Source of the DNA: a virus
Length of the DNA stretch: 28,681 bases
IMG/VR virus record: IMGVR_UViG_3300032116_001024
Coordinates: 1 to 28,681 of that record
Strand: one strand, 5' to 3'
Shown: in pieces, positions 2,824 to 23,440 of the stretch
Position numbering within the stretch: position 1 is the stretch's first letter
How the letters are laid out: every line of letters starts with the position of its first letter
Translations under genes and position numbers: made by a program
The notes under the pieces: generated by a model
The model's input: only the letters and a program-made list of their open reading frames with translations
What the model was told of the DNA's origin: nothing
Database searches by the model: none

Positions 2824-3890
2824 TGATTAACAATTTTTTTAAAGAAAAAAAGATAGCAGTTTTTACTGATATTCATATCGGGGTACATCGTGATTCTCCT
2901 TTATGGCATCAAATTGCTTTGGATTGGGTAGATTGGTTTGTAAATCAAGTTCGTTCAAAAGGTATTGAGAATATTTTATTTTGTGGTGATTTTTTTCATA
3001 ATCGTTCTTCTGTAGATTTAACCACACTCCAAACTGGCGCTAAAGTCATTGAAAAATTAAAAGACTTTAATTTACTCATGATAGCCGGAAACCATGATAG
3101 TTATTATAAAAATAACGCTTCTGTTAATTCTCTATCTCCTTTTAAAGGTAAGAAGAATATTTTTGTGGTTGATGAAACACCATTTACTATAGAAGACAAA
3201 ATAAAAATTTGTCTTTGTCCTTGGGGAACTGAATTAGAATCTATACCACAATGTGATCTTTTAATCGGACATTTTGAAATTCAAAACTTTAAAATGAATC
3301 AATTTAAAGTGTGCGATCATGGTCTTGGATCTGATTCTATTTTAAATAAAGCTAATCTTATTCTTTCGGGTCATTTTCATTTAAGAGAACATAGAAAGTA
3401 TCCAAACGGTAAAAGCATTCTTTATTTAGGTTCACCCTATGAAATGGATTTTGGTGAAAGAGGCCAAATAAAAGGATTTCATATCCTAGATACTGATACT
3501 TTGGATGTGGAATTTGTCGAAAACCACAACACACCAAGACACATCAAGATAAAAATTTCTGACCTATTGTCTGGTAATATTAAACCAGAAGAGCTTCCTT
3601 CTCTTCTTCATAATAATTTTATTGCTGTAGATGTAGATAAAAAAATGGATACTCAAACCTTAGATTTGATCATATCCAAATTTGCTCAACATCAACCTAA
3701 ACACGTTAGAACAGACTTTAATATCTTTGAACAAATGCAACTATCTGCTACAGAGATTGAAGAGTTTAGTTTTGATATTGATCAAGCCTTACAAGAATTT
3801 GTTGGTCTTTTAGAAACAGAAGTTCCAAAGGAGCAAATTTTAAATAAGTGTTTAGAATTCTATAAACTTTCTTTAGTACAAAATGAGTAA
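2823..3890 (+). CDS. 47: gp47-like recombination nuclease subunit (Mre11/SbcD type)
   Basis: This 355-residue calcineurin-like phosphoesterase corresponds to T4 gp47 (339 residues), the nuclease subunit of the gp46/gp47 complex that resects DNA ends for recombination. The metal-binding motifs occur in order: TDIHIG (15-20), GDFFHNR (55-61), GNHD (89-92), IGHFE (about 148-152) and SGHFHLREH (182-190). It overlaps the gene 55 stop as TAATG. Its usual partner, gene 46, lies about 11 kb downstream beyond a block of sugar-metabolism genes, which is unusual. The stop overlaps the start of the first island gene (ATGAGTAA), so the island is translationally coupled to gene 47. Confidence 0.95.
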   Translation: MINNFFKEKKIAVFTDIHIGVHRDSPLWHQIALDWVDWFVNQVRSKGIENILFCGDFFHNRSSVDLTTLQTGAKVIEKLKDFNLLMIAGNHDSYYKNNASVNSLSPFKGKKNIFVVDETPFTIEDKIKICLCPWGTELESIPQCDLLIGHFEIQNFKMNQFKVCDHGLGSDSILNKANLILSGHFHLREHRKYPNGKSILYLGSPYEMDFGERGQIKGFHILDTDTLDVEFVENHNTPRHIKIKISDLLSGNIKPEELPSLLHNNFIAVDVDKKMDTQTLDLIISKFAQHQPKHVRTDFNIFEQMQLSATEIEEFSFDIDQALQEFVGLLETEVPKEQILNKCLEFYKLSLVQNE

Positions 3891-4686
3891 AAATAATTTT
3901 GGAGTAGCTATTATTACCTGTGATAGAGTAGATTATGTTAATAATCTGTTAAATTGTTTACCGTCTTCAGAAATTTTACCATTTGTTATTAATGATGGTG
4001 AATCTGATTTGTCTGGTATAAACAAACCCCATCATTGTAGAAAAACAGAAAAACCAAGAAGTGGAGTTGGCAAAGCTAAAAATATAGCTTTGAAACAATT
4101 GATGAATATCGGTTATGATTATTTGTTTCTTTTAGAAGATGACATTCTTATTAAAGACACTGAAGTTTTTCAAAAGTACATTGAAGCTTCTAAATTGTCT
4201 GGTATTCAACATTTTAATTTCGCATTTCATGGTAATGACAATTATAAACCAGACGGATCTCCTGCTATTAATTTACAGGTAGAATATTCTAAAGATTGTG
4301 CGATTTGTCTTTATCCGAATGTTTACGGAGCTTTGTCTTTTTACACTCGTCGATGCATTGAAGAATGTGGTTATATGGATGAATATTACCACAACGCTTT
4401 AGAACATGTAGATCATACCTATAAAATTATTGAAAAACAAATGCATCCCCCATTTAGATGGTTTGCAGATATTGCGGATAGTTCGAAATATATTTCAGAA
4501 CAAGATTCCAATCATTCGGGGTCTACTATTAGAAAAGATCAAAATTGGATTCAAAATTTTCATAACATGGCAGATTACTTTGCCGAACAAAATAATTTTG
4601 ATGTAAGAAATCCATATACCAAAGTAGCTAGTAAAGAAGAAACAATTCAGTCGTTAAAGGAGATTAAAAAATTATGGAAAAAATAG
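3883..4686 (+). CDS. GT-A glycosyltransferase (family 2-like)
   Basis: This 267-residue protein begins with a beta strand typical of GT2 enzymes (VAIITCDR, 8-15). It has the GVGKAKNIAL segment (61-70) that follows the nucleotide pocket and LLEDDILI (83-90), whose E-D-D is the metal- and UDP-sugar-binding DxD-type site. The C-terminal half carries aromatic motifs (FRWFADI) and a family-specific ESEQDSNHSG-like region. It would transfer a sugar from a nucleotide donor; donor and acceptor are unknown. It is the first gene of the island, and its neighbour at 4674 is a paralogue with the same EDD...FQKYIE.SK.SG layout. The genes overlap by 13 bases. Confidence 0.85.
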   Translation: MSKNNFGVAIITCDRVDYVNNLLNCLPSSEILPFVINDGESDLSGINKPHHCRKTEKPRSGVGKAKNIALKQLMNIGYDYLFLLEDDILIKDTEVFQKYIEASKLSGIQHFNFAFHGNDNYKPDGSPAINLQVEYSKDCAICLYPNVYGALSFYTRRCIEECGYMDEYYHNALEHVDHTYKIIEKQMHPPFRWFADIADSSKYISEQDSNHSGSTIRKDQNWIQNFHNMADYFAEQNNFDVRNPYTKVASKEETIQSLKEIKKLWKK

Positions 4687-5453
4687 GAGTAGGAATTGTA
4701 ACTTATAATTCAGAAAATTATTATAAAGATCTTTTTAATAGTATTGATCAAACTAAAATTGATCATTTAGTTACAGTAAATGGAGGAGATGAATATTCTA
4801 AACGTTATGGCAATCATTGGATTCAACATACAGTAAACAAATATCCAGCAGTTTGTCGGAATGACGCTATTACTGCTTTGTTAAAAGAAGATTGTGATCA
4901 TATTTTTATCATTGAAGATGATATGATCATTCAAGATTCTAATATTTTTCAAAAATATATTGAAACCTCTAAAGTTTCGGGTTTGAAATATTTTTCTTTT
5001 GTTAGTACATCTTGGGAATCAGGTACACCAGAAAAAAGAACACCCCGTCTTGTGATAGAATATTCTAAAAATATTAGTGTTTCTTTTTATAACAATATGT
5101 GTAATGAATTTACATATCACCACAAATCGTGTTATGATAAAGTAGGATTTTATGATTCTCAATTTAGAGATCCATTTGACATTGATATGGCATATAGAGA
5201 GTCACAACAAGACTACGCAGCTCCTTTTTGGTGGTTCGCTGATATCACCAATTCAGATTTTTATATCAAAAACAATCCAGTAGCTGTTAGTCGTCTTCAA
5301 GCTGAAAGACCTGATGGCAATAGAGAACAACGTATTCAGGAACAATGGAAATTGTTCATTCAGAAACATGGTGTGATGGTCAATCAAATACCAAATGTTT
5401 CGAGAGAAAGCATTTTAGAAAAAATAAAAAAAATTAAAAAAATGTCTTGTTAA
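4674..5453 (+). CDS. GT-A glycosyltransferase, paralogue of the preceding gene
   Basis: This 259-residue GT2-like protein has an N-terminal VGIVTYN strand (6-12), CRNDAITALL (61-70) and IIEDDMII (79-86) with the DxD-type site at 81-83. It then matches the upstream gene closely (QDSNIFQKYIETSKVSGLK against KDTEVFQKYIEASKLSGIQ), and both share WFADI near the C-terminus. The pair looks like a tandem duplication that diverged, probably to add successive sugars or use different acceptors. It ends in a Lys-rich tail (EKIKKIKKMSC). The following 79 bases hold no gene, and the AT-rich sequence there shows at most a weak promoter. Confidence 0.85.
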   Translation: MEKIGVGIVTYNSENYYKDLFNSIDQTKIDHLVTVNGGDEYSKRYGNHWIQHTVNKYPAVCRNDAITALLKEDCDHIFIIEDDMIIQDSNIFQKYIETSKVSGLKYFSFVSTSWESGTPEKRTPRLVIEYSKNISVSFYNNMCNEFTYHHKSCYDKVGFYDSQFRDPFDIDMAYRESQQDYAAPFWWFADITNSDFYIKNNPVAVSRLQAERPDGNREQRIQEQWKLFIQKHGVMVNQIPNVSRESILEKIKKIKKMSC

Positions 5454-5532
5454 AACGGCAAATCCAAAATAATATATTATAGTACGTTTCTTTTTAAAAC
5501 AAATAAGAGCTTGAACAAATTTATTTCAAATC

Positions 5533-6339
5533 ATGAATGCTGCTATATCTTTATCTGTTAATTTTAAATATGATTATTTAAAACCATATCTTAAAAGTTT
5601 TAATGAATGCGTAGATGCTGATCTGTTTATGATAACTGATCACAATAGTCATACCATACCCTTAAATTCTAAAAAAATATATTTTATTAATGTATTTGAT
5701 TTGATAAAAAAATATAATGTTGCGACCCTCACTCCTTATAATTTAAAACCAGTTTTATTTTATCTTTTTTTAAAAGAACTTAAAAAAACAAACAAATATA
5801 AAAACATTTTATTAACAGATGTTGATGTTGTTTTTCAAAATGATCCATTTGTTGTTTATAATAATAACTTTGCAAATTGTGGGTTGGTTTTAGGCGAAGA
5901 AAGACACTTTTATAAAGATTGCGAAACTAATAGTATATGGTTTAAACAAGGATATAATGAGTATTACGATCAAGTTAAAGATAAAAAAATATTAAATTGT
6001 GGTGTAACTATCGGGCCGATTGATGAACTTATAGATTATCAAAAAAAAGTTGCAATGGAATTAGGTAATGTTTTAGCAAGACAAAATTATTTTGCATATG
6101 ATCAGGTTATTTTGAACTACCTTACATATGTTACTGAAACCCTCAAATTTAAAACACTTAGCCATTTAATAAATGATTATATTGTACATCTTTCGCAACA
6201 AGATGAAATAAGTGATTTATCTTTATGGGTAAAAAATAATATAGTTTACAACCCAGAAACAAACAACCCATTTACAATTATTCACCAATTTGATAAAAAG
6301 AAAGGGCTTAAAGAGTTTGTATTTAAAAAATATGAGTAA
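5533..6339 (+). CDS. DxD glycosyltransferase (nucleotide-diphospho-sugar transferase type)
   Basis: This 268-residue protein contains ILLTDVDVVFQNDPF (92-106). The D-x-D followed by F-x-N-D-P is characteristic of GT8/GT77-like nucleotide-diphospho-sugar transferases, where it binds the metal and sugar nucleotide. Later landmarks are LNCGVTIG (about 156-163), AYDQVILN and the C-terminal IIHQFDK, typical of the His that closes the active site in this fold. It has no signal peptide and should act in the cytoplasm of the infected cell. It begins a new block after a 79-base gap. The sequence is very AT-rich, with long A/T runs, more so than the genes 47 and 46 that flank the island. Confidence 0.8.
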   Translation: MNAAISLSVNFKYDYLKPYLKSFNECVDADLFMITDHNSHTIPLNSKKIYFINVFDLIKKYNVATLTPYNLKPVLFYLFLKELKKTNKYKNILLTDVDVVFQNDPFVVYNNNFANCGLVLGEERHFYKDCETNSIWFKQGYNEYYDQVKDKKILNCGVTIGPIDELIDYQKKVAMELGNVLARQNYFAYDQVILNYLTYVTETLKFKTLSHLINDYIVHLSQQDEISDLSLWVKNNIVYNPETNNPFTIIHQFDKKKGLKEFVFKKYE

Positions 6340-6535
6340 TTTAATTTATATTTTTTAGATAATAATTTTTATCAAGAATCTACTGTTTTATACATACACA
6401 TATCTTCCATATTTTTATAAATCAACATATTTTAATAATAATAAATATGTTGATAATTCACACTCTATAATCGACAATAAGTATTGTTTTGGCGATACAT
6501 GTTTTAATGTTGAAGATTTTAAAAAATACTTCTAA
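6332..6535 (+). pseudogene. decayed reading frame with in-frame amber stop
   Basis: An ATG at 6332 overlaps the previous stop as ATGAGTAA, the same junction used at 3883, so a real gene probably once began here. After eight codons a TAG interrupts it. The same frame then stays open to a TAA at 6533-6535 and reads plausible protein at its end (KYVDNSHSIIDNKYCFGD, then VEDFKKYF). A second frame between two T-runs also reads well (FLDNNFYQESTVLYIH), so an alternative is a pair of compensating frameshifts. I cannot assign a family. This and the next entry are the only content of the 331-base stretch 6340-6670. Confidence 0.45.
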
Positions 6536-6623
6536 ATATAATGAAATTTTAAATATTTTTAAAACAAAATAGTATAGAACAAACTGAATTGAATTTTTAT
6601 ATTTCTTGACTTGTAATCTAATA

Positions 6624-6674
6624 ATGAAAAAAATATTAACGACATTTGCTGGTTTTAGTTATAATTTAAAATGA
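6624..6674 (+). pseudogene. 16-codon remnant of a glycosyltransferase start
   Basis: ATG at 6624 opens MKKILTTFAG and stops after 16 residues at TGA 6672-6674, overlapping the next gene's ATG. The start resembles the gene at 7456 (MKKILVTFAD), a common opening of GT-A enzymes, so this looks like the leftover 5' end of a deleted paralogue. It could still act as a short upstream peptide coupling translation to the gene at 6671. Confidence 0.35.
6660..6665 (+). promoter_or_regulatory. candidate -10 box before the gene at 6671
   Basis: A perfect TATAAT lies five bases before the ATG at 6671, the same geometry as the leaderless-type promoters elsewhere in the window. No TTGA-type -35 box occurs at 16 bases; TTAACG at 18 bases is weak. 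Confidence 0.3.
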
Positions 6675-7459
6675 AAATAGTTTTTGGAATCAATACCTAT
6701 AAAGATAGTTCTGATTTAAACACCAGACAAAAACTCTGCATTAAAAGTTTAAAAAAAATAAGTTCTGAAAATAATCATATTGTAAATTTACAGTTTAATG
6801 ATGATTATTTTGAATATAAAGATTTCAATAAAACATTAAAATTGTATCAATCTTCACAATATTATATCTCACATTCTTCGTATAAATTTCCTATAGTCTC
6901 TGAAATCTTTGACGTTTTATCGAATGAAGATTGTGACTATTTTGTGTTTTTGAATGATGACATTATTATTCAAAAAAATTTTTTAAATGAAATAGAAGAT
7001 TTTGATTATGATTGTTATATTGCTTCTAGAGTAGATATAAATTTACATGAGAATGGGGAATGTTATACTCCAGTAAATTACAACATTCATGGTTTTGATT
7101 TGTTTTGTATTAAAAAAGAATGGTGGTTAAAAAATAGAGACAAATTTCCACCTTTAATACTTGGAAAATATTTTTGGGATACAGCTTATTATGTTTTATG
7201 TAAAAAATACGGTAAGACTAAAACCCTTAACGAATTACCTTATTCTATTTTACACCCTATTCATAATGGAGATTCAAATCATCAAACTAAAGAACATTTT
7301 TATAATCAATCGACAGTAGATCTTAAAATTATACAATCTTGGTTTTACGTTGCTAATAATATTTTAACAAATAGATTAGATGATAAAGGGATAAAAAATA
7401 GTTTACCTACTTTGAATGAAGAAATAAATAGTGATTTGTATTTAAAAGAAAATTTATGA
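6671..7459 (+). CDS. glycosyltransferase-like protein (GT-A, NDD motif)
   Basis: This 262-residue protein opens with a Rossmann-like strand (MKIVFGINTYKDS). It has DYFVFLNDDIII (89-100), whose N-D-D at 95-97 occupies the place of the DxD metal site in GT2-like enzymes, preceded by a long helix with SYKFPIVSEIFDVL. The C-terminal half has HGFDLFCIKKEWW and YSILHPIHNGDSNH, giving His and Asp residues that could complete the active site. Function is inferred from the fold-like pattern and the surrounding glycosyltransferases; substrate is unknown. Its stop overlaps the next start as ATGA. Confidence 0.7.
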   Translation: MKIVFGINTYKDSSDLNTRQKLCIKSLKKISSENNHIVNLQFNDDYFEYKDFNKTLKLYQSSQYYISHSSYKFPIVSEIFDVLSNEDCDYFVFLNDDIIIQKNFLNEIEDFDYDCYIASRVDINLHENGECYTPVNYNIHGFDLFCIKKEWWLKNRDKFPPLILGKYFWDTAYYVLCKKYGKTKTLNELPYSILHPIHNGDSNHQTKEHFYNQSTVDLKIIQSWFYVANNILTNRLDDKGIKNSLPTLNEEINSDLYLKENL

Positions 7460-8205
7460 AAAAAATTTTAGTAACATTTGCAGACAAAAATCCTCCTTTA
7501 GTAACTAGCCAAAGTGAGTTAATAAAACAATCTAAATCCTATTTTGATGGGCATGCTTCTTTTTCATTAAAGGATATAGATGAAAATTTTTATAAAAAGA
7601 ATGAACATATTCTTAAACAAAGAAGAGGAGTTGGTTATTGGTTATGGAAGCCTTATTTTATAGACAGAGTTCTTTCTATTTTGGATGAAGGGGATTTTTT
7701 ATTTTATATTGATAGTGGAACAGCTATTGTGAAAGATATATCTTGTTTGTTTAGATTATGTGAAAAGACTGGAGGAATTTTATTATTCGAAAATAGAGAT
7801 AGTAATCCCCATAAACAAATTTGGTTAAACAATCAATGGACTAAAAAAGATTGTTTTGTGAAAATGAATTGTGATGAATCTCAATATGTTCAAGGAATGC
7901 AATGTTCCGGTAATTTGCAACTTTATAAAAAGAATGAAAAATCTGTTAATTTTGTAAAAGAATATTTAAAGTATTGTGAAGATGAAGATATTCTTACGGA
8001 TAAACCTAATTTGTTAGGTGATAATTACCCAGAATTTACAGATCACCGTCATGATCAATCAATTTTATCTCTTTTGGGAATCAAACATAAAATTCCCTTT
8101 CTACCATCACCATCAGAATGCGGAGAAGGAACAAGACCAGATAAATGTCCCTATCAAACAGTTTTTTGGCATCATCGAGGATTAATTTATGGCAGAACTT
8201 CTTAA
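7456..8205 (+). CDS. glycosyltransferase-like protein with GYWLWKP motif
   Basis: This 249-residue protein carries RGVGYWLWKPYFI (57-69) and FLFYIDSGTAI (81-91). The first motif is typical of a family of capsule/LPS-type transferases in which Trp-rich G-x-W-x-W-K-P binds the donor. The second (D-S-G after a hydrophobic strand) stands where GT-A enzymes have DxD. A later HRHDQSILSLL gives the usual D-Q pair near the acceptor site. It starts within the previous stop (ATGA) and overlaps the next gene by 17 bases, so it sits in the middle of a tightly coupled operon. A short remnant at 6624 may derive from a relative. Confidence 0.7.
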   Translation: MKKILVTFADKNPPLVTSQSELIKQSKSYFDGHASFSLKDIDENFYKKNEHILKQRRGVGYWLWKPYFIDRVLSILDEGDFLFYIDSGTAIVKDISCLFRLCEKTGGILLFENRDSNPHKQIWLNNQWTKKDCFVKMNCDESQYVQGMQCSGNLQLYKKNEKSVNFVKEYLKYCEDEDILTDKPNLLGDNYPEFTDHRHDQSILSLLGIKHKIPFLPSPSECGEGTRPDKCPYQTVFWHHRGLIYGRTS

Positions 8206-8899
8206 AGAACTTTATATACATCATCATCTGGGTTTAGGTGATCACATTGTTTGTAATGGATTGGTTCGCAACATTCACAAACGGATAACCCCAAACATTC
8301 ATTTGTTTTGTAAACCAATGTATCATGAAAATATTCTCTATATGTATAGAGACACTAATATCAATATTATACCTTTAGATGATCACGATATCGCACCTTT
8401 TCTGGCCAAAATAGACCCCAAAAATATTATTCGTGTGGGACATCACCACATCATGAAGTACATACAAGGTACTACTTTTGATCATGCATTTTATAAACAG
8501 GTAGGACTTGATTTTAAAAAAAGATGGACTGATTTTTATATTGAAAGAGACCGAGTTAAAGAAGAAGAATTGTATCAAAAAATTAATCCACCAGAAAATT
8601 ATATTTTCTTGCACGATGATCCCTCTAGAGATTTTGTCATAGATCAAAAACATATTATTAATAAAAATTTAAAAATTATTAAACCGGATTTAAAATTAAC
8701 TTCTAACATTTTTGAATATACTAAAATTTTAGAAAATGCCACAGAAATACACTGCATAGATAGTTGTTTTCGATTGTTTGCAGATTCTTTTTTGAAAGAA
8801 AATAATCAACAATCTTTATTCTTCCATTTTAGATTATTAAACGGTCTTATCAAAGACAGAACTTATGCCCAATCTCGATTACCTTGGAAATTTATATGA
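8189..8899 (+). CDS. GT-B fold glycosyltransferase-like protein (GT9-like)
   Basis: This 236-residue protein has the N-terminal HLGLGDHIVCNG (13-24), the glycine-rich loop with G-D-x-(I/V) seen in heptosyltransferase-like GT-B proteins. A later segment (ATEIHCIDSCFRLFADSF) fits the second Rossmann half, where GT9 enzymes recognise the donor. It is shorter than full GT9 enzymes (300-350 residues), so it may be a compact or single-substrate version. It overlaps the preceding gene by 17 bases, and its TGA overlaps the ATG of the next gene. The donor is unknown; heptose is possible but not shown. Confidence 0.65.
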   Translation: MAELLKELYIHHHLGLGDHIVCNGLVRNIHKRITPNIHLFCKPMYHENILYMYRDTNINIIPLDDHDIAPFLAKIDPKNIIRVGHHHIMKYIQGTTFDHAFYKQVGLDFKKRWTDFYIERDRVKEEELYQKINPPENYIFLHDDPSRDFVIDQKHIINKNLKIIKPDLKLTSNIFEYTKILENATEIHCIDSCFRLFADSFLKENNQQSLFFHFRLLNGLIKDRTYAQSRLPWKFI

Positions 8900-9705
8900 A
8901 AAATATTATTAATGGAGTTAATTTACAATCTGTAGCTAATGTAATCATCGACCAAGATAGAAAGGATAGTTTACAAAATTTGCCAGATAAAACAATCATC
9001 TGGTGTAAAACTGATTATTTGGGAAATTTATTTCAAGAATTAAATCAATGTAAAGATAAAAATTTTGTATTGATAAGTCATTGTTCTGATCATGCTATTA
9101 CTGAAAAAGTTTTTAATCACAAACCCGAATGTATTCGCAAATGGTTTGCTCAGAATGTAGATTACAGACACCCCGATTTAATACCACTACCAATCGGGGT
9201 TGAAAATCATTTTACATTAAATAAAGGAAGTTATACAAATTTTCCTATATTAGAAAACAACGCATTTGATTTTAGAATTAAAAACAAAATAATAAACAAG
9301 TTGTATTGTAATTTTGGAAACACACACCCTTCTCGAAATTCAGTAAGAAATATATTACTAAACAATAATATGTGTATACAAGATTCTCGTATCACATACG
9401 AACAATACACCAATAGAATAAAAGAATTTTTATTTGTAGCTTCTCCAAGAGGAAATGGCATAGACACACACAGGACTTGGGAGTCTTTATATTTTGGTTG
9501 TATTCCTATTGTTGAAAAACATTTTATGTTTGATGGATATGAAGGATTGCCCATCATTCAAATAACAGATTGGAATGAAGTCAATAATGATTTTCTCAAA
9601 CCTTATATTGAACAATATAAAAATGGCAGTTGCTTTAAACAAACAGAAAAATTAAATTTAAATTATTGGATAACATTAATCCAAGAAACCTCAAAAAACA
9701 TTTAA
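8896..9705 (+). CDS. exostosin-like glycosyltransferase (GT47-like)
   Basis: From ATG 8896, which overlaps the previous stop as ATGA, the protein has 269 residues. A TTG start at 8884 is possible but less likely. The diagnostic part is at about residues 179-206: FLFVASPRGNGIDTHRTWE, then YFGCIPIV. This is the exostosin-type pattern in which S-P-R-G-N-G-x-D-x-H-R contacts the nucleotide sugar and the following aromatic/Gly-Cys-x-P segment closes the donor site. Upstream, DLIPLPIGVENHF marks the link between the two GT-B halves. It probably adds one sugar to a growing glycan. Confidence 0.78.
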   Translation: MKNIINGVNLQSVANVIIDQDRKDSLQNLPDKTIIWCKTDYLGNLFQELNQCKDKNFVLISHCSDHAITEKVFNHKPECIRKWFAQNVDYRHPDLIPLPIGVENHFTLNKGSYTNFPILENNAFDFRIKNKIINKLYCNFGNTHPSRNSVRNILLNNNMCIQDSRITYEQYTNRIKEFLFVASPRGNGIDTHRTWESLYFGCIPIVEKHFMFDGYEGLPIIQITDWNEVNNDFLKPYIEQYKNGSCFKQTEKLNLNYWITLIQETSKNI

Positions 9706-9706
9706 A

Positions 9707-10297
9707 ATGATTGGACAAATTAACAGAAACAGTAAACTAGGTGAAACGTTATACGAATTAGCCAAACAACCAGATGTAAACACTATTGTAGAAATTGGTA
9801 CTTGGAATGGAGCTGGTTCTACTCGTTGCATTATTGATGGTATTAAAGATAGTGGTTCTAAAAAAACTTTTATTAGTTTAGAAAGTAATAAAGAACAATA
9901 TAAATTAGCTCTTCAAAATCTTGAACCTTACAAAGATTTTGTAAATTCCCTTTACGGAAGAATCATTGATGTATATGACTTGACTTGGCTTAAAGGTGTT
10001 ACTCTTGGTCCAGAACAACAACAATGGTTATGGGAGGATGTTGAAGGATATAAAGAATGCCCGAATGTTTTAGATAAAATTCCAGAACAAATTGATTTGC
10101 TGTTATTAGATGGGGGAGAATTTTCAACAATTCCTGAATTTATTAAATTAAAATCTAGATACAAATATTTGGTATTAGACGACATCACCGCTTTAAAATG
10201 TAAAGAAATAAACAGACAACTTTCTAACAGAAATGATCACATCTTACTAAAAACAGACACAGAAAGAAATGGGTTTTCTGTCTTTAAAAAGGTATAA
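9707..10297 (+). CDS. class I SAM-dependent methyltransferase
   Basis: This 196-residue protein has a clear SAM-binding motif I, IVEIGTWNGAGST (27-39), an acidic residue ending strand 2 (ISLESN, 55-60) and LLLLDGGEF (130-138), whose Asp-Gly-Gly resembles the metal/acceptor site of O-methyltransferase-like class I enzymes (MTase_24 type). Its place among glycosyltransferases suggests methylation of a sugar hydroxyl, but the substrate is not visible. The start is one base after the previous stop, and its stop overlaps the next start as TAATG. Confidence 0.82.
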   Translation: MIGQINRNSKLGETLYELAKQPDVNTIVEIGTWNGAGSTRCIIDGIKDSGSKKTFISLESNKEQYKLALQNLEPYKDFVNSLYGRIIDVYDLTWLKGVTLGPEQQQWLWEDVEGYKECPNVLDKIPEQIDLLLLDGGEFSTIPEFIKLKSRYKYLVLDDITALKCKEINRQLSNRNDHILLKTDTERNGFSVFKKV

Positions 10298-10929
10298 TGA
10301 AAATAGCAGTATGCATAACGGGACAAATTAGAGAGGGATTAAAATTCCTTGATAATATTTATAATTTTTGCATTAAAGATTTATCACCGGATGTATACTT
10401 ACACACATATGAAGGCGACGAGATAAATACAATACTAGATTTTTATAAACCTAAAAAATATGTATTAGAAAATCCAGATCACAATTATTTGAAAATAGAT
10501 ACTTGTAAATATGTTTACAAGGACAATGGTTGCAAACCATCAAATACTTTAAACATGTGGAGAAAGAGAAAACAAGTATATGAATTAATTGGCGAAGAGT
10601 TGTATGATACAATTTTAATAACACGTTTTGATGCATATGGCCACACATCTATAACTCCCCATCTTGATACAGATAAACTATGTATACCTTTTAGAGGTAA
10701 TTACCATAGAGGTATTTTTGATCTTTGTGCATGGGGTAAACCTGATTATATAAAATATTACTGTTCTTTGTATGATAAAATAGATGAGTATTATGAGAAT
10801 AAAGTATGGTTTCATCCTGAAACTATATTAAAACATCACCTAGTTCAAAGACCAGACATTCAGATAGAACGAGTGTATGTGCCTTTTACTTTAAGACATA
10901 TAGTGAACTTTGGGAGTGATTCTCCATGA
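10297..10929 (+). CDS. putative glycosyltransferase, ITGQIR family
   Basis: This 210-residue protein begins KIAVCITGQIR (2-12), a signature of small transferase-like proteins found in capsule and LPS clusters. A central ILITRFDAYGH (106-116) has the T-R-x-D pattern that stands where the sugar nucleotide binds in that family. A C-terminal VWFHPETILKHHL supplies conserved His and Glu. No family member I know of is well characterised biochemically, so transferase activity is inferred from motif and context. Its stop overlaps the next gene as ATGA. Confidence 0.6.
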   Translation: MKIAVCITGQIREGLKFLDNIYNFCIKDLSPDVYLHTYEGDEINTILDFYKPKKYVLENPDHNYLKIDTCKYVYKDNGCKPSNTLNMWRKRKQVYELIGEELYDTILITRFDAYGHTSITPHLDTDKLCIPFRGNYHRGIFDLCAWGKPDYIKYYCSLYDKIDEYYENKVWFHPETILKHHLVQRPDIQIERVYVPFTLRHIVNFGSDSP

Positions 10930-12290
10930 TAAAATTAATAATTTTCGATTTAGATGGTGTTTTAGTAAAGGCAAAAAAAATACATTTTGATGCACTTAAT
11001 AAAGCGTTAGGTGAAAAATATAGTATTTCTTGGGAAGATCATTTAAACAGATATGATGGCTTAAAAACATTTCAAAAATTAGAAATGTTGACTAAAGAAA
11101 AACAATTAAATGTATCTGAGTATGATAAAGTTTGGAAAGAAAAACAAAAATACACTGTAAATGAACTTCAAAATTTAAAAAAATCAAATAGTTTAAGAAA
11201 TTGTTTAAGTGATTTATCACAAAAAGGTTATAAAATAGCTTGTGGTAGTAATAGTATAAGAAAGACAGTTATAACAGTTCTTTCAAAATTAAATATTATT
11301 GAATTTTTTGACTTAATTGTATCAAATGAAGATGCTAAAAATAGTAAACCTCACCCTGAAATTTATTGGAAATGTATTTCAGAAATGAGTGTTTTACCAG
11401 AAGAAACTTTAATAGTAGAAGATTCACCACACGGACTACTTGCGGCTCACAGAAGTAGAGCGAATATTTTGCGTGTGAAAGATCCAGATGACGTTACAAT
11501 AAAAAATATTAACTTCCGTTTAAATGAATTAAATAAAATGGAATATTATATGCCTAAATGGAAAGATGAAAAATTAAATGTGGTCATACCAATGGCTGGT
11601 GCGGGTTCAAGATTTGAAAAGGCTGGGTATACTTTTCCGAAACCTTTAATTGATGTTAAAGGAAAACCAATGATACAGGTAGTAGTTGAATCCTTAAACA
11701 TAGATGCAAATTATATATATTTGGTACAAAAAACTCATAGAGAAAAATATAATCTTGATACTTTGTTAAATTTAATAACACCAAATTGTAAGATAGTAGA
11801 GATTGAAGGCCTTACAGAAGGTGCTGCATGTACAACTTTACTAGCAAAAGAACATATCAACAATGACAATCCTATTATTATGGCAAACTCTGATCAGTAT
11901 ATTGATTGGGATTCAAATGAATTCATGTATAAGATGAATGAAAATAATTGTGATGGTGGTATATTGGTATTTAAATCTACACATCCTAAGTGGTCTTTTG
12001 CTAAAATAGACAATGACGGATATGTAATTCAAGTTGCAGAAAAAAATCCAATTAGTGATATTGCTACTGTTGGGGTATATTACTGGAAAAGGGGTTCGGA
12101 TTATGTAAAATATACTGAACAGATGATTAATAAAAATATTCGGACTAATAATGAATTTTACGTCTGCCCTGTGTTTAATGAAGCAATAAGTGACAATAAA
12201 AAAATAAAAACATTTGAAATAGAAAAAATGTGGGGAATTGGAACTCCCGAAGATTTAGATACTTTTTTAAAACAATATGATAATATTTGA
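10926..12290 (+). CDS. HAD phosphatase-nucleotidyltransferase fusion
   Basis: The 454-residue protein joins two enzymes. Residues 1-190 form a HAD-superfamily domain of the beta-phosphoglucomutase type: FDLDG (7-11) with the nucleophile Asp, CGSNS (106-110), SKPHPEIY (140-147) with the conserved Lys, and VEDSPHG (164-170). Residues about 217-454 form a sugar-phosphate nucleotidyltransferase: VIPMAGAGSRF (220-230), FPKPLIDVKGKPM (237-249) and ANSDQY (320-325) with the metal Asp. It could dephosphorylate or isomerise a sugar phosphate and then activate it to a nucleotide sugar for the surrounding transferases. The GmhB/HddC steps of GDP-heptose synthesis are a comparable pairing, but the sugar here is unknown. 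Confidence 0.85.
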   Translation: MIKLIIFDLDGVLVKAKKIHFDALNKALGEKYSISWEDHLNRYDGLKTFQKLEMLTKEKQLNVSEYDKVWKEKQKYTVNELQNLKKSNSLRNCLSDLSQKGYKIACGSNSIRKTVITVLSKLNIIEFFDLIVSNEDAKNSKPHPEIYWKCISEMSVLPEETLIVEDSPHGLLAAHRSRANILRVKDPDDVTIKNINFRLNELNKMEYYMPKWKDEKLNVVIPMAGAGSRFEKAGYTFPKPLIDVKGKPMIQVVVESLNIDANYIYLVQKTHREKYNLDTLLNLITPNCKIVEIEGLTEGAACTTLLAKEHINNDNPIIMANSDQYIDWDSNEFMYKMNENNCDGGILVFKSTHPKWSFAKIDNDGYVIQVAEKNPISDIATVGVYYWKRGSDYVKYTEQMINKNIRTNNEFYVCPVFNEAISDNKKIKTFEIEKMWGIGTPEDLDTFLKQYDNI

Positions 12291-12867
12291 TGTTGGTGCA
12301 AATAATGGTTCTAGTTGTGAATCATATATAAAGGAAGAAAATATGGTGTATGCTTTTGAACCTACACCATATTTATTAAATAATTTTTTATACAAAAAAA
12401 GTTGTAAAAATTATATAGTAATACCTAAAGCAGTTTCAGATTATAACGGGGTTGCTGAATTTAATATTGCAGGTCAATCTGATTGGGGGTGTAGTTCATT
12501 AAATAAATTTGAAAATAATTTAGATCAAACCTGGCCAGGTAGAACAGATTTCAAAATAACAGAAACTATACAAGTTGAAGTTACTAGATTGGATACATTT
12601 ATAGAAGAAAATAAAATATCACATATAGATTTTTTGCATTGTGATACACAGGGAAATGATTTTAAAGTATTAAAGTCCTTAGGTAAATTTATCAACATTC
12701 TTCGTGCAGGTAGTGTAGAAGCATTTAAACAAAACCCTTTATATATTAATATTGATAATCATTTAGACAATATTATTCAATTTCTTGAAGAAAATAAATT
12801 TAAAATTAAAAATATAATACCTAATGATTGCCATGACAATGAACATAACATAATATTTGAAAGATAA
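12277..12867 (+). CDS. FkbM-type methyltransferase
   Basis: This 196-residue methyltransferase starts directly with motif I (IIFDVGANNGSS, 2-13), followed by AFEPTPYLL (26-34) and RLDTFIEENKISHIDFLHCDTQGND (about 103-127, listed here as the R-L-D-T, I-D-F-L and D-x-x-G-x-D landmarks). These are the hallmarks of FkbM enzymes, which O-methylate sugars or polyketides. It overlaps the nucleotidyltransferase gene by 14 bases. With the other methyltransferase in the island it suggests that the final glycan carries methyl groups, perhaps as end caps. Confidence 0.88.
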   Translation: MIIFDVGANNGSSCESYIKEENMVYAFEPTPYLLNNFLYKKSCKNYIVIPKAVSDYNGVAEFNIAGQSDWGCSSLNKFENNLDQTWPGRTDFKITETIQVEVTRLDTFIEENKISHIDFLHCDTQGNDFKVLKSLGKFINILRAGSVEAFKQNPLYINIDNHLDNIIQFLEENKFKIKNIIPNDCHDNEHNIIFER

Positions 12868-12869
12868 TT

Positions 12870-13319
12870 GTGATACTCATATCACACAGGGGAAATATAA
12901 ATGGGAAAAATGAATTATATGAAAATGAACCCTCATATATTAACTCAGCATTAGATGAAGGTTATGATGTGGAAATAGATGTATGGTTAAAAAATGAAAA
13001 ATGGTTTTTAGGACATGATATACCACAATATGAAATAAATTACAATTGGTTAAACGATAGAAAAGACTCACTTTGGGTTCATTGTAAAAATATTGAAGCT
13101 GTTGTTAATTTACACAGTAAAGATATGCATTATTTTTGGCATGAAAATGATAAAATTACTTTAACCAGTAAAAATTACATCTGGGCTTTTCCAAGTGAAA
13201 ATAAAATTAAAGAAAGTATAGATGTGTTACCTGAACGATATCCTAACATTATTTCAAATTGCTTAGGTGTGTGTAGTGATTATATTGCAAATTTTAAATA
13301 CAATATTTATAGCAAATGA
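12870..13319 (+). CDS. short glycerophosphodiester phosphodiesterase-like protein
   Basis: This 149-residue protein uses a GTG start at 12870, three codons' distance from no better ATG; the first residues (ILISHRG) are already the core of the first strand, so a later start is impossible. It has HRG (6-8), VEIDVW (34-39) and LGHD (47-50). These supply the His, Glu, Asp and second His of the GDPD metal/catalytic site. Typical GDPDs have 230 or more residues, so this is a compact version lacking much of the later barrel. Possible roles are cleaving or transferring a glycerophosphate group in the glycan pathway. Its stop overlaps the next start as ATGA. Confidence 0.65.
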   Translation: MILISHRGNINGKNELYENEPSYINSALDEGYDVEIDVWLKNEKWFLGHDIPQYEINYNWLNDRKDSLWVHCKNIEAVVNLHSKDMHYFWHENDKITLTSKNYIWAFPSENKIKESIDVLPERYPNIISNCLGVCSDYIANFKYNIYSK

Positions 13320-14176
13320 ATTTTACTAAGAAAAATTTTGTAGATGGTTCTTTTTATCTTTATGAAAAATTTAAAGATGATAAACCTTTCGCTACTGGTA
13401 AGATAGGCAATTGTGAATTAATTTGTATTTACAATTATTTTTTATTCCAACACAAAAACCAATCAGTCCAATGGGCACCTAATGTTATAGAAGAGTCATA
13501 TAATAATACTGGAGTTTTTCCTAAAACAGAAGAAGCCAGAATTGATTTTATTAACCAAATCACAACTGATTTAAAAGATATAGATTCTTTGGCTTGGTGG
13601 TCTATGTTTAATTTAGATTTTGAAGCTCGATATATTAAAAAAAATTCACCAAATTGTGAATTATTAGATCTTCAAAGTCTGGAACCTTTTTATTCAGGTT
13701 CTCCATGGACAGAACATTTAGAGAATAAAAAAGTGTTGGTTATTTCTCCTTTTGTAGAAACAATCCAAAAACAATATTCTATCAAAGATAAATTATGGAA
13801 AGATCCACGTATTCTCCCAGATTTTAAATTACTAACAATCAAACACCAACATTCTCCTGGAATTGATAAACCCAGTCCTTATTCTTCTTGGAAAGAAATG
13901 ATAGAAAATATTAAAAAACTAATGTCAAATACAGACTATGATGTTCTTTTAATAGGAGCCGGAGCTTCTGCCTTACCGTTAGTAGCTCATGCTAAAAGAA
14001 GTGGTAAAAAAGGAATCCATTTAGGGGGACCTTTACAATTGTTATTTGGTATTAAAGGATCAAGGTGGGATAATGGCCCTATTGCTAAACATTTTTATAA
14101 TGAGTATTGGGCAAGACCTTCATTGGAAGAAACCCCAGAAAAATTTAAAAATATTGAAGGTGGGTGTTATTGGTAA
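13316..14176 (+). CDS. GT-D-like glycosyltransferase candidate
   Basis: This 286-residue protein has an N-terminal PFATGKIGNCELICI (about 24-38). In GT-D-type transferases a short loop G-x-x-x-x-E at this place binds the donor. It has a strongly conserved-looking C-terminal block beginning VLLIGAGASALPLVAHAK (about 213-230), followed by GIHLGGPLQLLFGIKG and RWD. That block is typical of proteins beside capsule clusters. The central WWSMFNLDFEARY is Trp-rich. I recognise the family pattern but not a specific reaction. It is coupled to the gene upstream by ATGA and ends nine bases before the next start. Confidence 0.55.
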   Translation: MNFTKKNFVDGSFYLYEKFKDDKPFATGKIGNCELICIYNYFLFQHKNQSVQWAPNVIEESYNNTGVFPKTEEARIDFINQITTDLKDIDSLAWWSMFNLDFEARYIKKNSPNCELLDLQSLEPFYSGSPWTEHLENKKVLVISPFVETIQKQYSIKDKLWKDPRILPDFKLLTIKHQHSPGIDKPSPYSSWKEMIENIKKLMSNTDYDVLLIGAGASALPLVAHAKRSGKKGIHLGGPLQLLFGIKGSRWDNGPIAKHFYNEYWARPSLEETPEKFKNIEGGCYW

Positions 14177-14185
14177 TTTATATTA

Positions 14186-14932
14186 ATGAATGTTAATTTT
14201 ATCATTACGGTTAATAATAGAGAAAATTATTGGCCTTATTTAAAAGAAATTTTTAATTCTTATAAAATTATTAAACCCAATATAGCTTTATGTTATAATG
14301 GAAATGATAAAAATTTTACCGCCGATTTTAAGTGTATTAATAAAGGGCATATAGAAGGTGAAATAGATTTAATAATTGGGGGTTACAACTTATTAAAAAA
14401 TAATAAAATTAATAAATGGGTTAAAATAGGGGTAGATAGTTGGTTATTAAATGAAGAAAAAATTTTATCTATTTTCAATGAAATGGATAAACAAAATTCA
14501 ATTTATGGTGGTAGTTATTGGAATGGGTATGATCGCTTATCTACCGACATATTTTTTGCTTCTACTGAAAATATTAATTTTTTAGAAGAATTAAATTATT
14601 TGTATGGCCCACCGGGTATTGAATTTAAAATGCTTCAATTAATAAACAAGTTTGGTGGTTTTTATATTATACCAGAAAGACAATATGTTGATGGTTGTAG
14701 TGGTAGTAGATTTGTCGTAGAATCGTTAGGATGGGTCATACAGCACGATTTAAGACTAAATTTAAAATTTGTTGAGTTGTATAAACAAAAGCACTTCTTA
14801 AAAGAGTATAACGAAGAATATTACCAAATTGTAATGAAAAAAATAAATGAGTTCGATTGGCATAATTTTATTTTTGTAGACCAGGATATCAAAAAACTTG
14901 ATTTGCAAATAAATGAAATCATGGATTTGTAA
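14186..14932 (+). CDS. putative glycosyltransferase, last gene of the island
   Basis: This 248-residue protein opens with NFIITVNNRENYWPYL, like a GT-A first strand. It has KWVKIGVDSWLL (about 88-99), in which D-S-W after a hydrophobic strand could act as the metal site. A second cluster, YVDGCSGSRFVVES, gives further conserved-looking polar residues. No classical DxD is present, so the transferase call rests on the fold-like pattern and the neighbours. The next gene, 46, has its own candidate promoter overlapping this gene's end. Confidence 0.45.
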   Translation: MNVNFIITVNNRENYWPYLKEIFNSYKIIKPNIALCYNGNDKNFTADFKCINKGHIEGEIDLIIGGYNLLKNNKINKWVKIGVDSWLLNEEKILSIFNEMDKQNSIYGGSYWNGYDRLSTDIFFASTENINFLEELNYLYGPPGIEFKMLQLINKFGGFYIIPERQYVDGCSGSRFVVESLGWVIQHDLRLNLKFVELYKQKHFLKEYNEEYYQIVMKKINEFDWHNFIFVDQDIKKLDLQINEIMDL

Positions 14933-14955: not shown

Positions 14956-16749
14956 GTGCATTTAGTTAATTTTAAAACCTTAGAGGTTAAAAACTTTCTT
15001 TCTATAGGAAATACTCCTGTAAATTTAAATTTTAAATCTGGTGTCAACATTATCACCGGTATTAATTTAGACAAAGAAGATTCTAAAAATGGAGTAGGAA
15101 AGTCTACGGTAGTGGAAGCTTTGCATTTCGCTTTATTCGGAACAACCATCAGAGAACTTAATAAAGATCTTATTGTTAATTCTAAAACCAAGAAAGATTG
15201 CGAGGCTAAATTAATATTTGACATTACTCATAACGGAGTCACTCACTGTTATCAAATCATTCGCACATTGCAACCAACTAAATGTTTCATTTCTAAGGGC
15301 GGAGAAGATGTTACAAGATCAACACTCCCCAAAACCAATGAATTTATTTGTAAGTTAATCCATTCTAATAGTAAAATTTTCCAAAATTCTGTTATTATGA
15401 CCATAAACAACACTATTCCGTTTATGGCACAATCTAAGGTAGATAAAAGAAAATTTATTGAAAGTATTTTAAATTTAGAAATTTTTTCTGAAATGCTTTT
15501 AAAAGTTCGTGAAGAATACAACGAGAAAAAAAGAGACTACGAAATTAGCCACGCTAAACATTCAGAAATTGAAAAAAATTACAATATCAATAAACAACAA
15601 TTAGATTTTTTTGTAGACAATAAAACTTCTAAAATTTTTAACATTCAAAAGAAAATAGAAGATAATCACTCCAGAATAGAAGATCTTAAAAAGTCTTTTC
15701 ATGAAATTCCTGAAAATGTTGATCAATTGTTTGTCACCAAAATTAATTCTCTTCAAGAAAAATTAAAAGAGATAAAGAATCAACAAAAAGATATTTTTGA
15801 AAAAGTCACAGAATATAAAACAGCCATTAAACACGAAAAGAGTGTTTTAGACAGTATTGGGGAGGTCAATGCTATTTGTTCAACTTGTAATAGACCCTAT
15901 TCAGAAGATGATATTAAACATAAAGAAGAAAATATTTCAAAAATTACTAATAAAATTGAAGAACTTACTAAGAATAAAAATGAAATATCTCTTCTTTTAG
16001 AAGAAGCAGAAAAGAAACAAGACGAAAAAGAGTCTGAAATTAACAATATCAATTCTAAAAGACAAAAAATTCAAGAATTTATTAAACAAAATTCGAACAT
16101 ACAAACTAAAATATCTTTTTTAATAGATAGTATTAAAGATTTTGAAGTAGAAGAAGAAAATATTAAAAAAGAGTCTAATAAACTTTTAGAAAATTCTGTA
16201 AAAGAACTTCTCAATAATTTAAATGAACACAAATCTCAATTGGAAAAATTTGATAATGAATTATCTGTATTAGAATGTGTTAAATTTGTAGTATCTGAAG
16301 AAGGGGTTAAATCTTATATTGTTCGTAAAATACTAAAGGTTCTTAATTCTCGTTTAGCTTATTATTTGGAGCAGTTACAAGCTAATTGTTTATGTACGTT
16401 TAATGAATTTTTTGATGAAAATATCACAGACGAAAAAGGTGAAGTGAGATCTTATTTTAATTTTTCTGGTGGTGAACGAAAAAGAATTGATTTGGCTAGT
16501 TTATTTGCGTTCTTAGATATCAGAAGAATGCAAGGTGATGTCCATTTTTCTACAATTTTTTATGATGAACTCTTGGATTCTTCTCTGGATGATAAAGGAG
16601 TAGAATTGGTTCTAAAAGTTCTCAGAGAGAGAATGGAGAAATACAAAGAAAATTGTTATATCATTACTCATCGTGGAACTACCGTTCTGGATAAAGCCGA
16701 TAGTATTACTATGCTTGAAAAGAAGAACGGATTCACATACATAGTTTAA
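14956..16749 (+). CDS. 46: gp46-like recombination ATPase subunit (Rad50/SbcC type)
   Basis: This 597-residue ABC-type ATPase corresponds to T4 gp46 (560 residues), the partner of gp47. Motifs are Walker A NGVGKST (45-51), two coiled-coil arms (about 170-300 and 325-450) around a zinc-hook CSTC (308-311), the ABC signature FSGGERKR (503-510) and Walker B TIFYDELLDSSLD (about 533-545) with ITHRG near the end. The start is GTG at 14956; the sequence immediately becomes the conserved first strand (LVNFKTLEVKNFLSIG), so an internal ATG is not suitable. It has a candidate promoter of its own, which would allow expression separate from gene 47 across the island. Confidence 0.95.
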   Translation: MHLVNFKTLEVKNFLSIGNTPVNLNFKSGVNIITGINLDKEDSKNGVGKSTVVEALHFALFGTTIRELNKDLIVNSKTKKDCEAKLIFDITHNGVTHCYQIIRTLQPTKCFISKGGEDVTRSTLPKTNEFICKLIHSNSKIFQNSVIMTINNTIPFMAQSKVDKRKFIESILNLEIFSEMLLKVREEYNEKKRDYEISHAKHSEIEKNYNINKQQLDFFVDNKTSKIFNIQKKIEDNHSRIEDLKKSFHEIPENVDQLFVTKINSLQEKLKEIKNQQKDIFEKVTEYKTAIKHEKSVLDSIGEVNAICSTCNRPYSEDDIKHKEENISKITNKIEELTKNKNEISLLLEEAEKKQDEKESEINNINSKRQKIQEFIKQNSNIQTKISFLIDSIKDFEVEEENIKKESNKLLENSVKELLNNLNEHKSQLEKFDNELSVLECVKFVVSEEGVKSYIVRKILKVLNSRLAYYLEQLQANCLCTFNEFFDENITDEKGEVRSYFNFSGGERKRIDLASLFAFLDIRRMQGDVHFSTIFYDELLDSSLDDKGVELVLKVLRERMEKYKENCYIITHRGTTVLDKADSITMLEKKNGFTYIV

Positions 16750-23400: not shown

Positions 23401-23424
23401 TAAATAACGAGCAAAGTCCATAAA
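23397..23424 (+). promoter_or_regulatory. candidate promoter of the homing endonuclease
   Basis: TTGATA (23397-23402), a 16-base spacer and CATAAA (23419-23424) match the window's promoter module with a weak -10 box. The same bases extend to CATAAATA (23419-23426), one base off the T4 late box. Either reading predicts a transcript starting at or near the ATG at 23432. Confidence 0.35.
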
Positions 23425-23440
23425 TAAAATTATGGACTTT
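23413..23440 (+). promoter_or_regulatory. hairpin hiding the endonuclease start codon
   Basis: AAAGTCCATAA (23413-23423) and TTATGGACTTT (23430-23440) form a perfect 11-bp stem with the loop ATAAAA. The endonuclease ATG (23432-23434) is inside the right arm. There is no T-run, so it is not a terminator. On messages read through from uvsX it would block translation, as known for T4 homing endonuclease genes. Confidence 0.75.

What the first reader, a model, noticed from the sequence alone, without database searches (positions are those of the whole stretch)
10926..12290. HAD phosphatase fused to a sugar nucleotidyltransferase
Seen: one 454-residue protein has a complete HAD domain (FDLDG, GSNS, KPHPE, VEDSPHG) and a complete nucleotidyltransferase (GAGSRF, FPKP, NSDQ). 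Known: such activities are normally separate steps. Inference: fusion channels a sugar phosphate to its nucleotide form, making the island independent of at least part of host metabolism. It is the best clue to the sugar used.
Basis: partly seen in the sequence, partly recalled or inferred. Interest (0 to 1): 0.5.

Follow-up and report, generated by a model that had tools for sequence, protein, structure and literature searches.

The report
Phage enzyme activating surface phosphate decorations
A phage carries a two-in-one enzyme (a phosphatase joined to a nucleotide-attaching enzyme) that turns up in many phages and, patchily, in bacteria, and its recurrent gene partners suggest that it prepares a small phosphate-linked decoration for surface sugars rather than an ordinary sugar.

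Summary
In detail: 10926-12290 encodes one 454-residue protein with a HAD phosphatase domain (HAD_2, E 2.4e-32) and a nucleotidyltransferase domain (NTP_transferase, E 1.4e-11). It is not unusual: 80 fetched IMG/VR loci carry the fusion, as do 11 Synechococcus phage records and 52 of 80 fetched bacterial or archaeal contigs. A minimal (~146 aa) GDPD-fold gene, 12870-13319 here, is in 68 of 81 fusion-bearing phage records. Found through that gene, 55 of 79 loci carry the fusion; of the 55 loci not overlapping the first set, 32 do. In eight bacterial loci, seven of them Legionellaceae, its place is taken by LicD, a phosphodiester-forming transferase family. In nine genomes checked, the two never occur together. 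Where HAD and nucleotidyltransferase are separate neighbours, a full-length GDPD relative precedes HAD in 9 of 10 loci. Best reading: a lic-like cassette that activates a small phosphorylated molecule for a phosphodiester decoration. Substrate and nucleotide are unknown; no assay supports any step. Side finding: RuBisCO-like genes in the phage variant lacking the HAD domain.

The parts
10926..12290 (+). HAD phosphatase - nucleotidyltransferase fusion, 454 aa
   Evidence: overlaps the gene before it by 4 bp (ATGA) and the gene after it by 14 bp
10926..11540 (+). HAD subclass I domain (residues 1-205): D8, D10, S108, K141, E165, D166 invariant in 47 rows
   Evidence: solved relatives 3kbb, 3e58, beta-phosphoglucomutases
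11565..12287 (+). Nucleotidyltransferase domain (residues 214-454): G225, G227, R229, F230, F237-P240, N321, D323, Q324, E372, K373 invariant; Gly437 at the usual second metal-Asp site
   Evidence: VIA-align best 4evw Z 27.7, rmsd 2.2, 229 aligned
12870..13319 (+). Minimal GDPD-fold protein, 149 aa: H6-R7-G8, E18-N19, E35, D37, H49-D50 invariant in 20 rows
   Evidence: phrog_34507, unknown function; linkage
12277..12867 (+). FkbM-type methyltransferase between fusion and GDPD-like gene; not among the recurrent partners
   Evidence: (Methyltransf_21, E 2.1e-23)
10297..10929 (+). Gene directly upstream (210 aa, phrog_13607, unknown function); its cluster occurs in 39 of 81 loci
3883..14932 (+). 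Island of glycan-type genes between gp47-like (2823-3890) and gp46-like (14956-16749) genes of a T4-like phage
   Evidence: gp46/gp47 names inferred from SMC and Metallophos matches; several island genes have no Pfam match

Best explanation
The protein is a bifunctional activating enzyme of a small surface-decoration cassette. Proposed order: the HAD domain removes one phosphate from a small bisphosphorylated sugar or polyol taken from central metabolism (inferred). The nucleotidyltransferase domain transfers a nucleotide onto the remaining phosphate, giving NDP-X, most likely CDP-X (inferred from LicD partners). A partner then uses NDP-X so that X-phosphate ends up on a glycan through a phosphodiester: LicD in the Legionella-type loci, the GDPD-fold protein or an unidentified transferase elsewhere (inferred). 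The GDPD-fold protein either makes or edits that phosphodiester. Shown by sequence: both domains, conserved catalytic residues, purifying selection, and the recurrent linkage. Not shown: any activity, substrate, nucleotide or product.
For: HAD motifs and the main nucleotidyltransferase motifs are invariant; dN/dS well below 1. Linkage runs both ways: the GDPD-like gene is near the fusion in 58 of 81 loci (22 directly downstream, 10 directly upstream) and is detected in the records of 10 of the other 23, one of these a 51-residue contig-edge fragment. The fusion is near the GDPD-like gene in 55 of 79 loci; the two sets overlap, and of the 55 loci that share no long stretch with the first set 32 carry the fusion. 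The linkage survives changes of gene order. In bacteria 47 of 52 fusion loci have a GDPD relative (39) or LicD (8) close by. In 9 genomes checked, 3 SAR11 and 1 Prochlorococcus genomes have the GDPD-like gene and no LicD (one SAR11 match is a contig-edge fragment), while 5 Legionella-type genomes have one LicD each, beside the fusion, and no minimal GDPD. LicD transfers phosphocholine from CDP-choline to glycans (PMC10434233, passages). Nucleotidyltransferases fused to the enzyme that makes their substrate are common in phosphonate clusters, and CMP-phosphonate formation was shown there (PMC6697681, passages).
Against: No activity was measured. Gly437 replaces an Asp that other nucleotidyltransferases use for metal (recalled). 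No kinase that could supply X was recognised among the island proteins scanned; other loci were not scanned for one. Of 81 fusion-bearing phage records 13 show no GDPD-like gene; nine of them are fragments of 6-42 kb, but four are 91 kb or longer. Five of 52 bacterial fusion loci have neither partner, and 16 of 79 GDPD-anchored phage loci have no nucleotidyltransferase of this family within about 7 kb. The islands hold glycosyltransferase-like genes that could use an ordinary sugar nucleotide. No relative of the Legionella LicD was found in the fetched phage loci by profile search.
Confidence: 0.42

Rival explanations
1. Ordinary sugar-nucleotide synthesis: the HAD domain clears a second phosphate from a sugar bisphosphate and the nucleotidyltransferase makes a conventional NDP-sugar for the island's glycosyltransferases (as GmhB plus HddC do for heptose; recalled). 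The GDPD-like gene does something unrelated in the same glycan pathway.
For: Closest annotated functions are sugar pyrophosphorylases, including heptose-pathway proteins 5xhw and 6jq8. Some island genes resemble glycosyltransferases (weak Pfam matches).
Against: Does not explain the reciprocal GDPD linkage or its replacement by LicD. No equivalog cut-off reached among the 25 of 49 matches shown.
Confidence: 0.3
2. The HAD domain is a pyrophosphatase that destroys the pyrophosphate released by the fused nucleotidyltransferase and so pulls the reaction forward.
For: HAD pyrophosphatases are among the matches: PpaX E 2.6e-19, BT2121-type E 1.1e-16, both below their cut-offs.
Against: The beta-phosphoglucomutase/YqaB group matches better (E 2.4e-31). 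Homologues occur as separate genes, which gains little if the aim is local pyrophosphate removal (inference).
Confidence: 0.1
3. The HAD domain is a phosphomutase of beta-phosphoglucomutase type that converts a sugar-6-phosphate into a beta-sugar-1-phosphate for the nucleotidyltransferase.
For: Best NCBIfam match is the PGMB-YQAB subfamily (109.4 bits); solved beta-phosphoglucomutases are among the top hits.
Against: Below the cut-offs of both models (153.35 and 189.4 bits). My hand reading of the cap loop (DGLKT) does not show the recalled Lys/Arg pair of the mutase; recalled, not tested.
Confidence: 0.1
4. One domain has lost catalysis and now only binds or regulates.
For: Gly437 at the second metal site. 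In Helicobacter and Campylobacter relatives, one of two nucleotidyltransferases has lost the GxGSRF loop (L156, L144).
Against: In the fusion the loop residues G225, G227, R229, F230 and the site residues N321, D323, Q324 are invariant, and dN/dS is lowest in this domain. 4evw shares the missing Asp.
Confidence: 0.08

Closest known systems
Lic pathway (LicC cytidylyltransferase plus LicD transferase)
   Same: Nucleotidyl activation of a small phosphate followed by transfer to a surface glycan; in 8 bacterial loci the fusion sits directly beside a LicD-family gene.
   Different: HAD phosphatase instead of choline kinase; LicA/LicB homologues were not searched for. In phages, SAR11 and Prochlorococcus a GDPD-fold protein is the neighbour instead.
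Phosphonate tailoring (PntC and its fusions; Rice et al. 2019, PMC6697681, passages read)
   Same: Nucleotidyltransferases fused to the enzyme that supplies their substrate, presumed there to serve surface decoration.
   Different: Different nucleotidyltransferase families (PF12804 or PF01467 there, PF00483 best here) and no phosphoenolpyruvate mutase among the Pfam matches of the 30 window proteins scanned.
4evw, Vibrio cholerae nucleoside-diphosphate-sugar pyrophosphorylase (structural genomics)
   Same: Closest solved relative of the nucleotidyltransferase domain: 31% identity, Z 27.7, rmsd 2.2 over 229.
   Different: The 255-residue chain holds no HAD domain; I found no function for it beyond the depositors' name.
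beta-phosphoglucomutase / YqaB-type HAD phosphatases
   Same: Motifs and best HMM matches.
   Different: Below curated cut-offs.
Glycerophosphodiester phosphodiesterases (partner gene)
   Same: Fold (e.g. 1vd6, Z 10.4, rmsd 3.1, 139 aligned) and HRG, EN, ExD, HD residues.
   Different: ~146 aa against 217 or more in the solved GDPDs listed; no Pfam match even at E 10; His71 here, Asn in full-length relatives, where the canonical third metal Glu is expected (alignment; the canonical residue is recalled).
GmhB plus HddC route to GDP-heptose
   Same: HAD phosphatase followed by a nucleotidyltransferase (recalled).
   Different: GmhB belongs to another HAD class (recalled); the partner genes differ.

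Membership tests
HAD superfamily, subclass I phosphatase | DxD, Ser/Thr, Lys and acidic (ED) motifs | tested here: met
   D8, D10, S108, K141, E165, D166 invariant in 47 rows; Pfam cut-off passed
beta-phosphoglucomutase (TIGR01990, TIGR02009) | Score over the curated cut-off | tested here: not met
   99.2 against 189.4 bits; 109.4 against 153.35 bits
NTP_transferase (PF00483) | Score over Pfam gathering cut-off and fold | tested here: met
   44.9 against 21.2 bits; Z 23-28 to the 50 pyrophosphorylase-type entries listed
RmlA-type sugar pyrophosphorylase | Second metal-binding Asp near the C-terminus (recalled) | tested here: inconclusive
   Gly437 invariant in 47 rows, but the site was matched by hand, not on a superposition
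RmlA-type sugar pyrophosphorylase | Curated equivalog score (TIGR01208) | tested here: not met
   55.9 against 320.25 bits
Lic pathway | LicD-family partner | tested here: inconclusive
   8 of 52 bacterial fusion loci; no relative of that LicD in the fetched phage loci
Lic pathway | Choline kinase and CTP:phosphocholine activity | not tested
   No search for LicA; activity cannot be tested with these tools
GDPD (PF03009), partner gene | Pfam gathering score | tested here: not met
   Minimal form: no match at E 10 for the two proteins scanned; full-length form L156: 19.4 against 23.6 bits
GDPD, partner gene | GDPD barrel and HRG / EN / ExD / HD residues | tested here: met
GDPD, partner gene | Hydrolysis of glycerophosphodiesters | not testable with these tools
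   needs an assay

The most novel reading that the evidence does not exclude
Phages and bacteria share an undescribed two-gene decoration cassette in which the ~146-residue GDPD-fold protein works as a transferase: it runs phosphodiesterase chemistry in the making direction, moving X-phosphate from NDP-X (made by the HAD-nucleotidyltransferase fusion) onto a glycan, and does the job of LicD in Legionella. Its substrate supply is modular: a HAD domain, a RuBisCO-like protein, or a transketolase/KdsC-like/PfkB set.
Probability: 0.22. Interest if true: 0.78.

Novelty: new variant of a known kind. Interest (0 to 1): 0.5.

Why it matters
If right, a widespread and apparently unstudied way of decorating surfaces with phosphate-linked groups is shared by phages and by SAR11, Prochlorococcus and Legionella. 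Surface decorations can decide phage adsorption (general knowledge). The cassette is small, is present in isolated cyanophages and in sequenced bacterial isolates, and makes clear biochemical predictions. It also gives a concrete context for phage-borne RuBisCO-like proteins.

Tried and rejected
Fusion as assembly or frame error: rejected; each of the 81 phage loci aligned has a fusion of 430-480 residues (the loci were found by similarity to it) and the frame is under selection. Fusion unique to this island: rejected. Substrate from curated models: no equivalog cut-off reached among the 25 of 49 matches shown. E. coli O-antigen parallels: a distant search with the Photobacterium region gave 5373 records but no place covering 80% of the query; the ten rows listed are wecA over 12% of it. 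Literature: ten searches listed no paper that I recognised as describing the fusion or the cassette; one search had 29,416 papers of which 12 were listed; the library lacks most subscription papers. I read only passages of PMC10434233, PMC6697681, PMC1821046 and PMC9602691, and of other papers only the listings. Sequence search of PDB with the full-length GDPD relative: no hit at E 0.1; with the minimal-family profile a weak hit to a GDPD (7e0v, E 0.0063); with one minimal protein nothing relevant. Host of the phage: unresolved; the DNA polymerase is under 32% identical to the 12 isolates listed, 11 of them Synechococcus phages; no tRNA. Domain orientation in the fusion model is not reliable (pTM 0.56), so I draw nothing on channelling. 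The HAD half was not tested by a fold search of its own; the list is filled by the nucleotidyltransferase half.

Limits of the counts: the 80-locus sets are the best-scoring of 115, 102 and at least 586, so they lean to close relatives, and many rows are related strains or near-copies. The 79 GDPD-anchored loci leave out L058, already held. 24 of the 79 share long identical stretches with fusion loci of the first set, so searches are not independent; I give the non-overlapping count too. Gene neighbours are from my own ORF calls of 60 codons or more. The profile of the full-length GDPD had 13 rows, eight from loci of the same set and five from plasmid loci; these had first shown up as weak hits of the minimal-family profile or as neighbours; L160 was left out of it. 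Two of 80 bacterial loci (L147, L164) had no detected nucleotidyltransferase in my gene calls and are counted as such. The profile of the RuBisCO-like protein was built from two of the nine loci it then found. The tree used 48 chosen rows, not all. The structure alignments used 47 of the 81 fusion rows and 20 of the 58 partner rows.

Full report
What is there. The window is an IMG/VR virus record of 28,681 bases. Its backbone genes mark a T4-like phage: a UvsW-like helicase, Metallophos and SMC-type (gp47/gp46-like) genes, family B DNA polymerase, RecA/UvsX pieces, a DnaB-like helicase and a gp32-like protein (Pfam matches; T4 names inferred). Between the gp47- and gp46-like genes lies an island of mostly unassigned, glycan-type genes. 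Within it 10926-12290 encodes a 454-residue protein with a HAD_2 domain (5-181) and an NTP_transferase domain (220-444). The main catalytic residues of both domains are invariant across 47 aligned phage proteins, apart from Gly437 at the usual second metal Asp (that Asp is recalled and the site matched by hand). Selection is purifying, strongest on the nucleotidyltransferase. The predicted domains are fairly confident (mean pLDDT 88.4) but their relative placement is not (pTM 0.56). The nucleotidyltransferase best matches 4evw (Z 27.7, rmsd 2.2, 229 aligned).

How common. A scan of IMG/VR gave 115 relatives; the best 80 were kept, at 66-74% identity in the best segment and nearly full length. 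Among phage records in GenBank, 11 cover at least 80% of the query, all Synechococcus phages and several of them records of the same phage. On contigs of GTDB species genomes the best 80 of 102 relatives include 52 fusions, 10 loci with HAD and nucleotidyltransferase as adjacent genes, 16 with the nucleotidyltransferase only and 2 in which I detected none. A tree of 48 rows puts 15 of the 17 phage rows in one starred clade (100/100) together with three rows from metagenome-assembled contigs. The two cyanophage rows lie elsewhere, one in a starred fork with Prochlorococcus, the other with a Poseidoniales contig. The tree needs 4 changes of the phage label, some of which come from those three contigs, which may themselves be viral. 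So the fusion sits in more than one phage lineage.

The partner. Clustering all genes around the fusion showed one family, ~146 residues, that recurs more than any other (58 of 81 loci; the next cluster 39). In those 58 loci it is always on the same strand: 22 directly downstream, 17 of them with a 4-bp overlap, 10 directly upstream, 26 at other positions. Of the 23 loci without it, 10 have it in the same record, one as a 51-residue fragment at a contig edge; of the other 13 records nine are 6-42 kb fragments, and four are 91 kb or longer and are the likeliest true exceptions. Starting from the partner instead, 55 of 79 loci carry the fusion within about 7 kb, 8 a stand-alone nucleotidyltransferase of the same family, 16 neither. 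The two sets overlap: 24 of the 79 share long identical stretches with the first set; of the 55 that do not, 32 carry the fusion. Three of the 16 (L239, L241, L243) lie in contigs that carry the fusion elsewhere. In the window the partner is 12870-13319. It carries HRG, EN, ExD and HD residues, folds with pLDDT 92.9 and pTM 0.88, and matches GDPD structures at Z about 10, although no Pfam model matches it. It lacks the length of ordinary GDPDs, and aligned relatives have His or Asn where canonical GDPDs have a metal-binding Glu (the canonical residue is recalled).

The bacterial context. Of the 52 fusion loci on bacterial or archaeal contigs, 38 have the minimal GDPD and 1 a full-length relative within five genes, 8 have a LicD-family gene directly upstream, 5 have neither. 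The LicD assignment was tested with Pfam on L102 (PF04991, E 5.2e-41) and in five genomes; the other loci are its BLAST relatives. At genome level the split is clean in the nine genomes examined: SAR11 (3) and Prochlorococcus (1) have the minimal GDPD and no LicD, one SAR11 match being only a contig-edge fragment; five Legionella-type genomes have one LicD each, next to the fusion, and no minimal GDPD (positions of the fusion). Where HAD and nucleotidyltransferase are separate genes, a full-length GDPD relative lies directly upstream of HAD in 9 of 10 loci. On a Pseudomonas aeruginosa plasmid such genes are annotated 'phosphodiesterase', 'HAD family phosphatase', 'glycosyltransferase family 2' and 'cupin'; 'glycosyltransferase family 2' is the usual name of the nucleotidyltransferase in the plasmid rows listed, which I think is a misnomer.

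What it most likely does. The nucleotidyltransferase and the GDPD relative recur together while the supply genes vary: a HAD domain, or a RuBisCO-like protein, or KdsC-like, PfkB and RpiB domains (L148), or transketolase-like, KdsC-like and PfkB-like genes (L199, named by eye). That pattern suggests that the GDPD relative acts at or after nucleotidyl activation. LicD transfers phosphocholine from CDP-choline to glycans (PMC10434233, passages), and FKTN/FKRP transfer ribitol phosphate from CDP-ribitol (PMC4873967, title and abstract start only; that these belong with LicD is recalled). I therefore favour a small phosphorylated sugar or polyol, activated as NDP-X and placed on a glycan by a phosphodiester. 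That the GDPD-fold protein is itself the transferase is bolder; it could equally hydrolyse mis-made or salvaged phosphodiesters. None of this has been measured.

Comparison and novelty. The nearest known logic is the Lic pathway and the phosphonate-tailoring pathway with its fused nucleotidyltransferases (PMC6697681, passages). The window's protein is not a proven member of either. Ten literature searches listed nothing that I recognised as this cassette; most subscription journals are not in that library. I rate it a new variant of a known kind, with moderate interest because function is inferred from context.

The inference that it frees the island from host metabolism is untested, and the hope that it names the sugar is not met. 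The adjacent genes are more informative than the fusion itself.

Noticed in passing
L186, L204, L206, L208, L209, L212, L215, L226, L235 (for example L206:5764-6999): RuBisCO-like proteins (two scanned, L209 and L235: RuBisCO_large E 8e-32 and 1.3e-34) in phage loci beside the minimal GDPD; five loci have exactly the order nucleotidyltransferase, cupin, RuBisCO-like, GDPD. Present in 9 of 79 GDPD-anchored loci: 7 of the 8 with a stand-alone nucleotidyltransferase, 2 with none, 0 of 55 with the HAD fusion. Some of these loci are near-copies.
   Followed up: partly
L137:107-2011: A SAR11 contig has the same pair near its edge: nucleotidyltransferase followed by a RuBisCO-like gene.
   Followed up: no
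L199:3435-7813: Phage locus with GDPD-like, two transketolase-like halves, KdsC-like HAD, PfkB-like kinase, nucleotidyltransferase and cupin genes; supply-gene names by eye.
   Followed up: no
L148:6794-9921: Bacterial cluster with HAD hydrolase, PfkB kinase, a nucleotidyltransferase-RpiB fusion, cupin and minimal GDPD.
   Followed up: partly
window 22573-25208: A RecA/UvsX-like gene is split: its first part ends in a Hint/intein-like half, a separate 356-aa gene follows, then the rest of the protein. Looks like a split-intein arrangement (Hint match; the C-terminal part judged by eye).
   Followed up: partly
L156:8624-9340, L144:8349-9074: In Helicobacter and Campylobacter relatives the nucleotidyltransferase beside HAD lacks the GxGSRF loop, while a second one after the cupin keeps it.
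   Followed up: no
L089 (Lokiarchaeota MAG), L087, L088: Three contigs binned to cellular genomes fall inside the phage clade of the fusion tree and may be viral contigs in the bins.
   Followed up: no
L086 (Synechococcus phage S-SM2): Genes annotated 'phosphoheptose isomerase' (SSM2_207, 103 aa; SSM2_210, 110 aa by my gene call) read by eye as short HAD-like proteins; the 148-aa 'hypothetical protein' SSM2_208 is the minimal GDPD.
   Followed up: no
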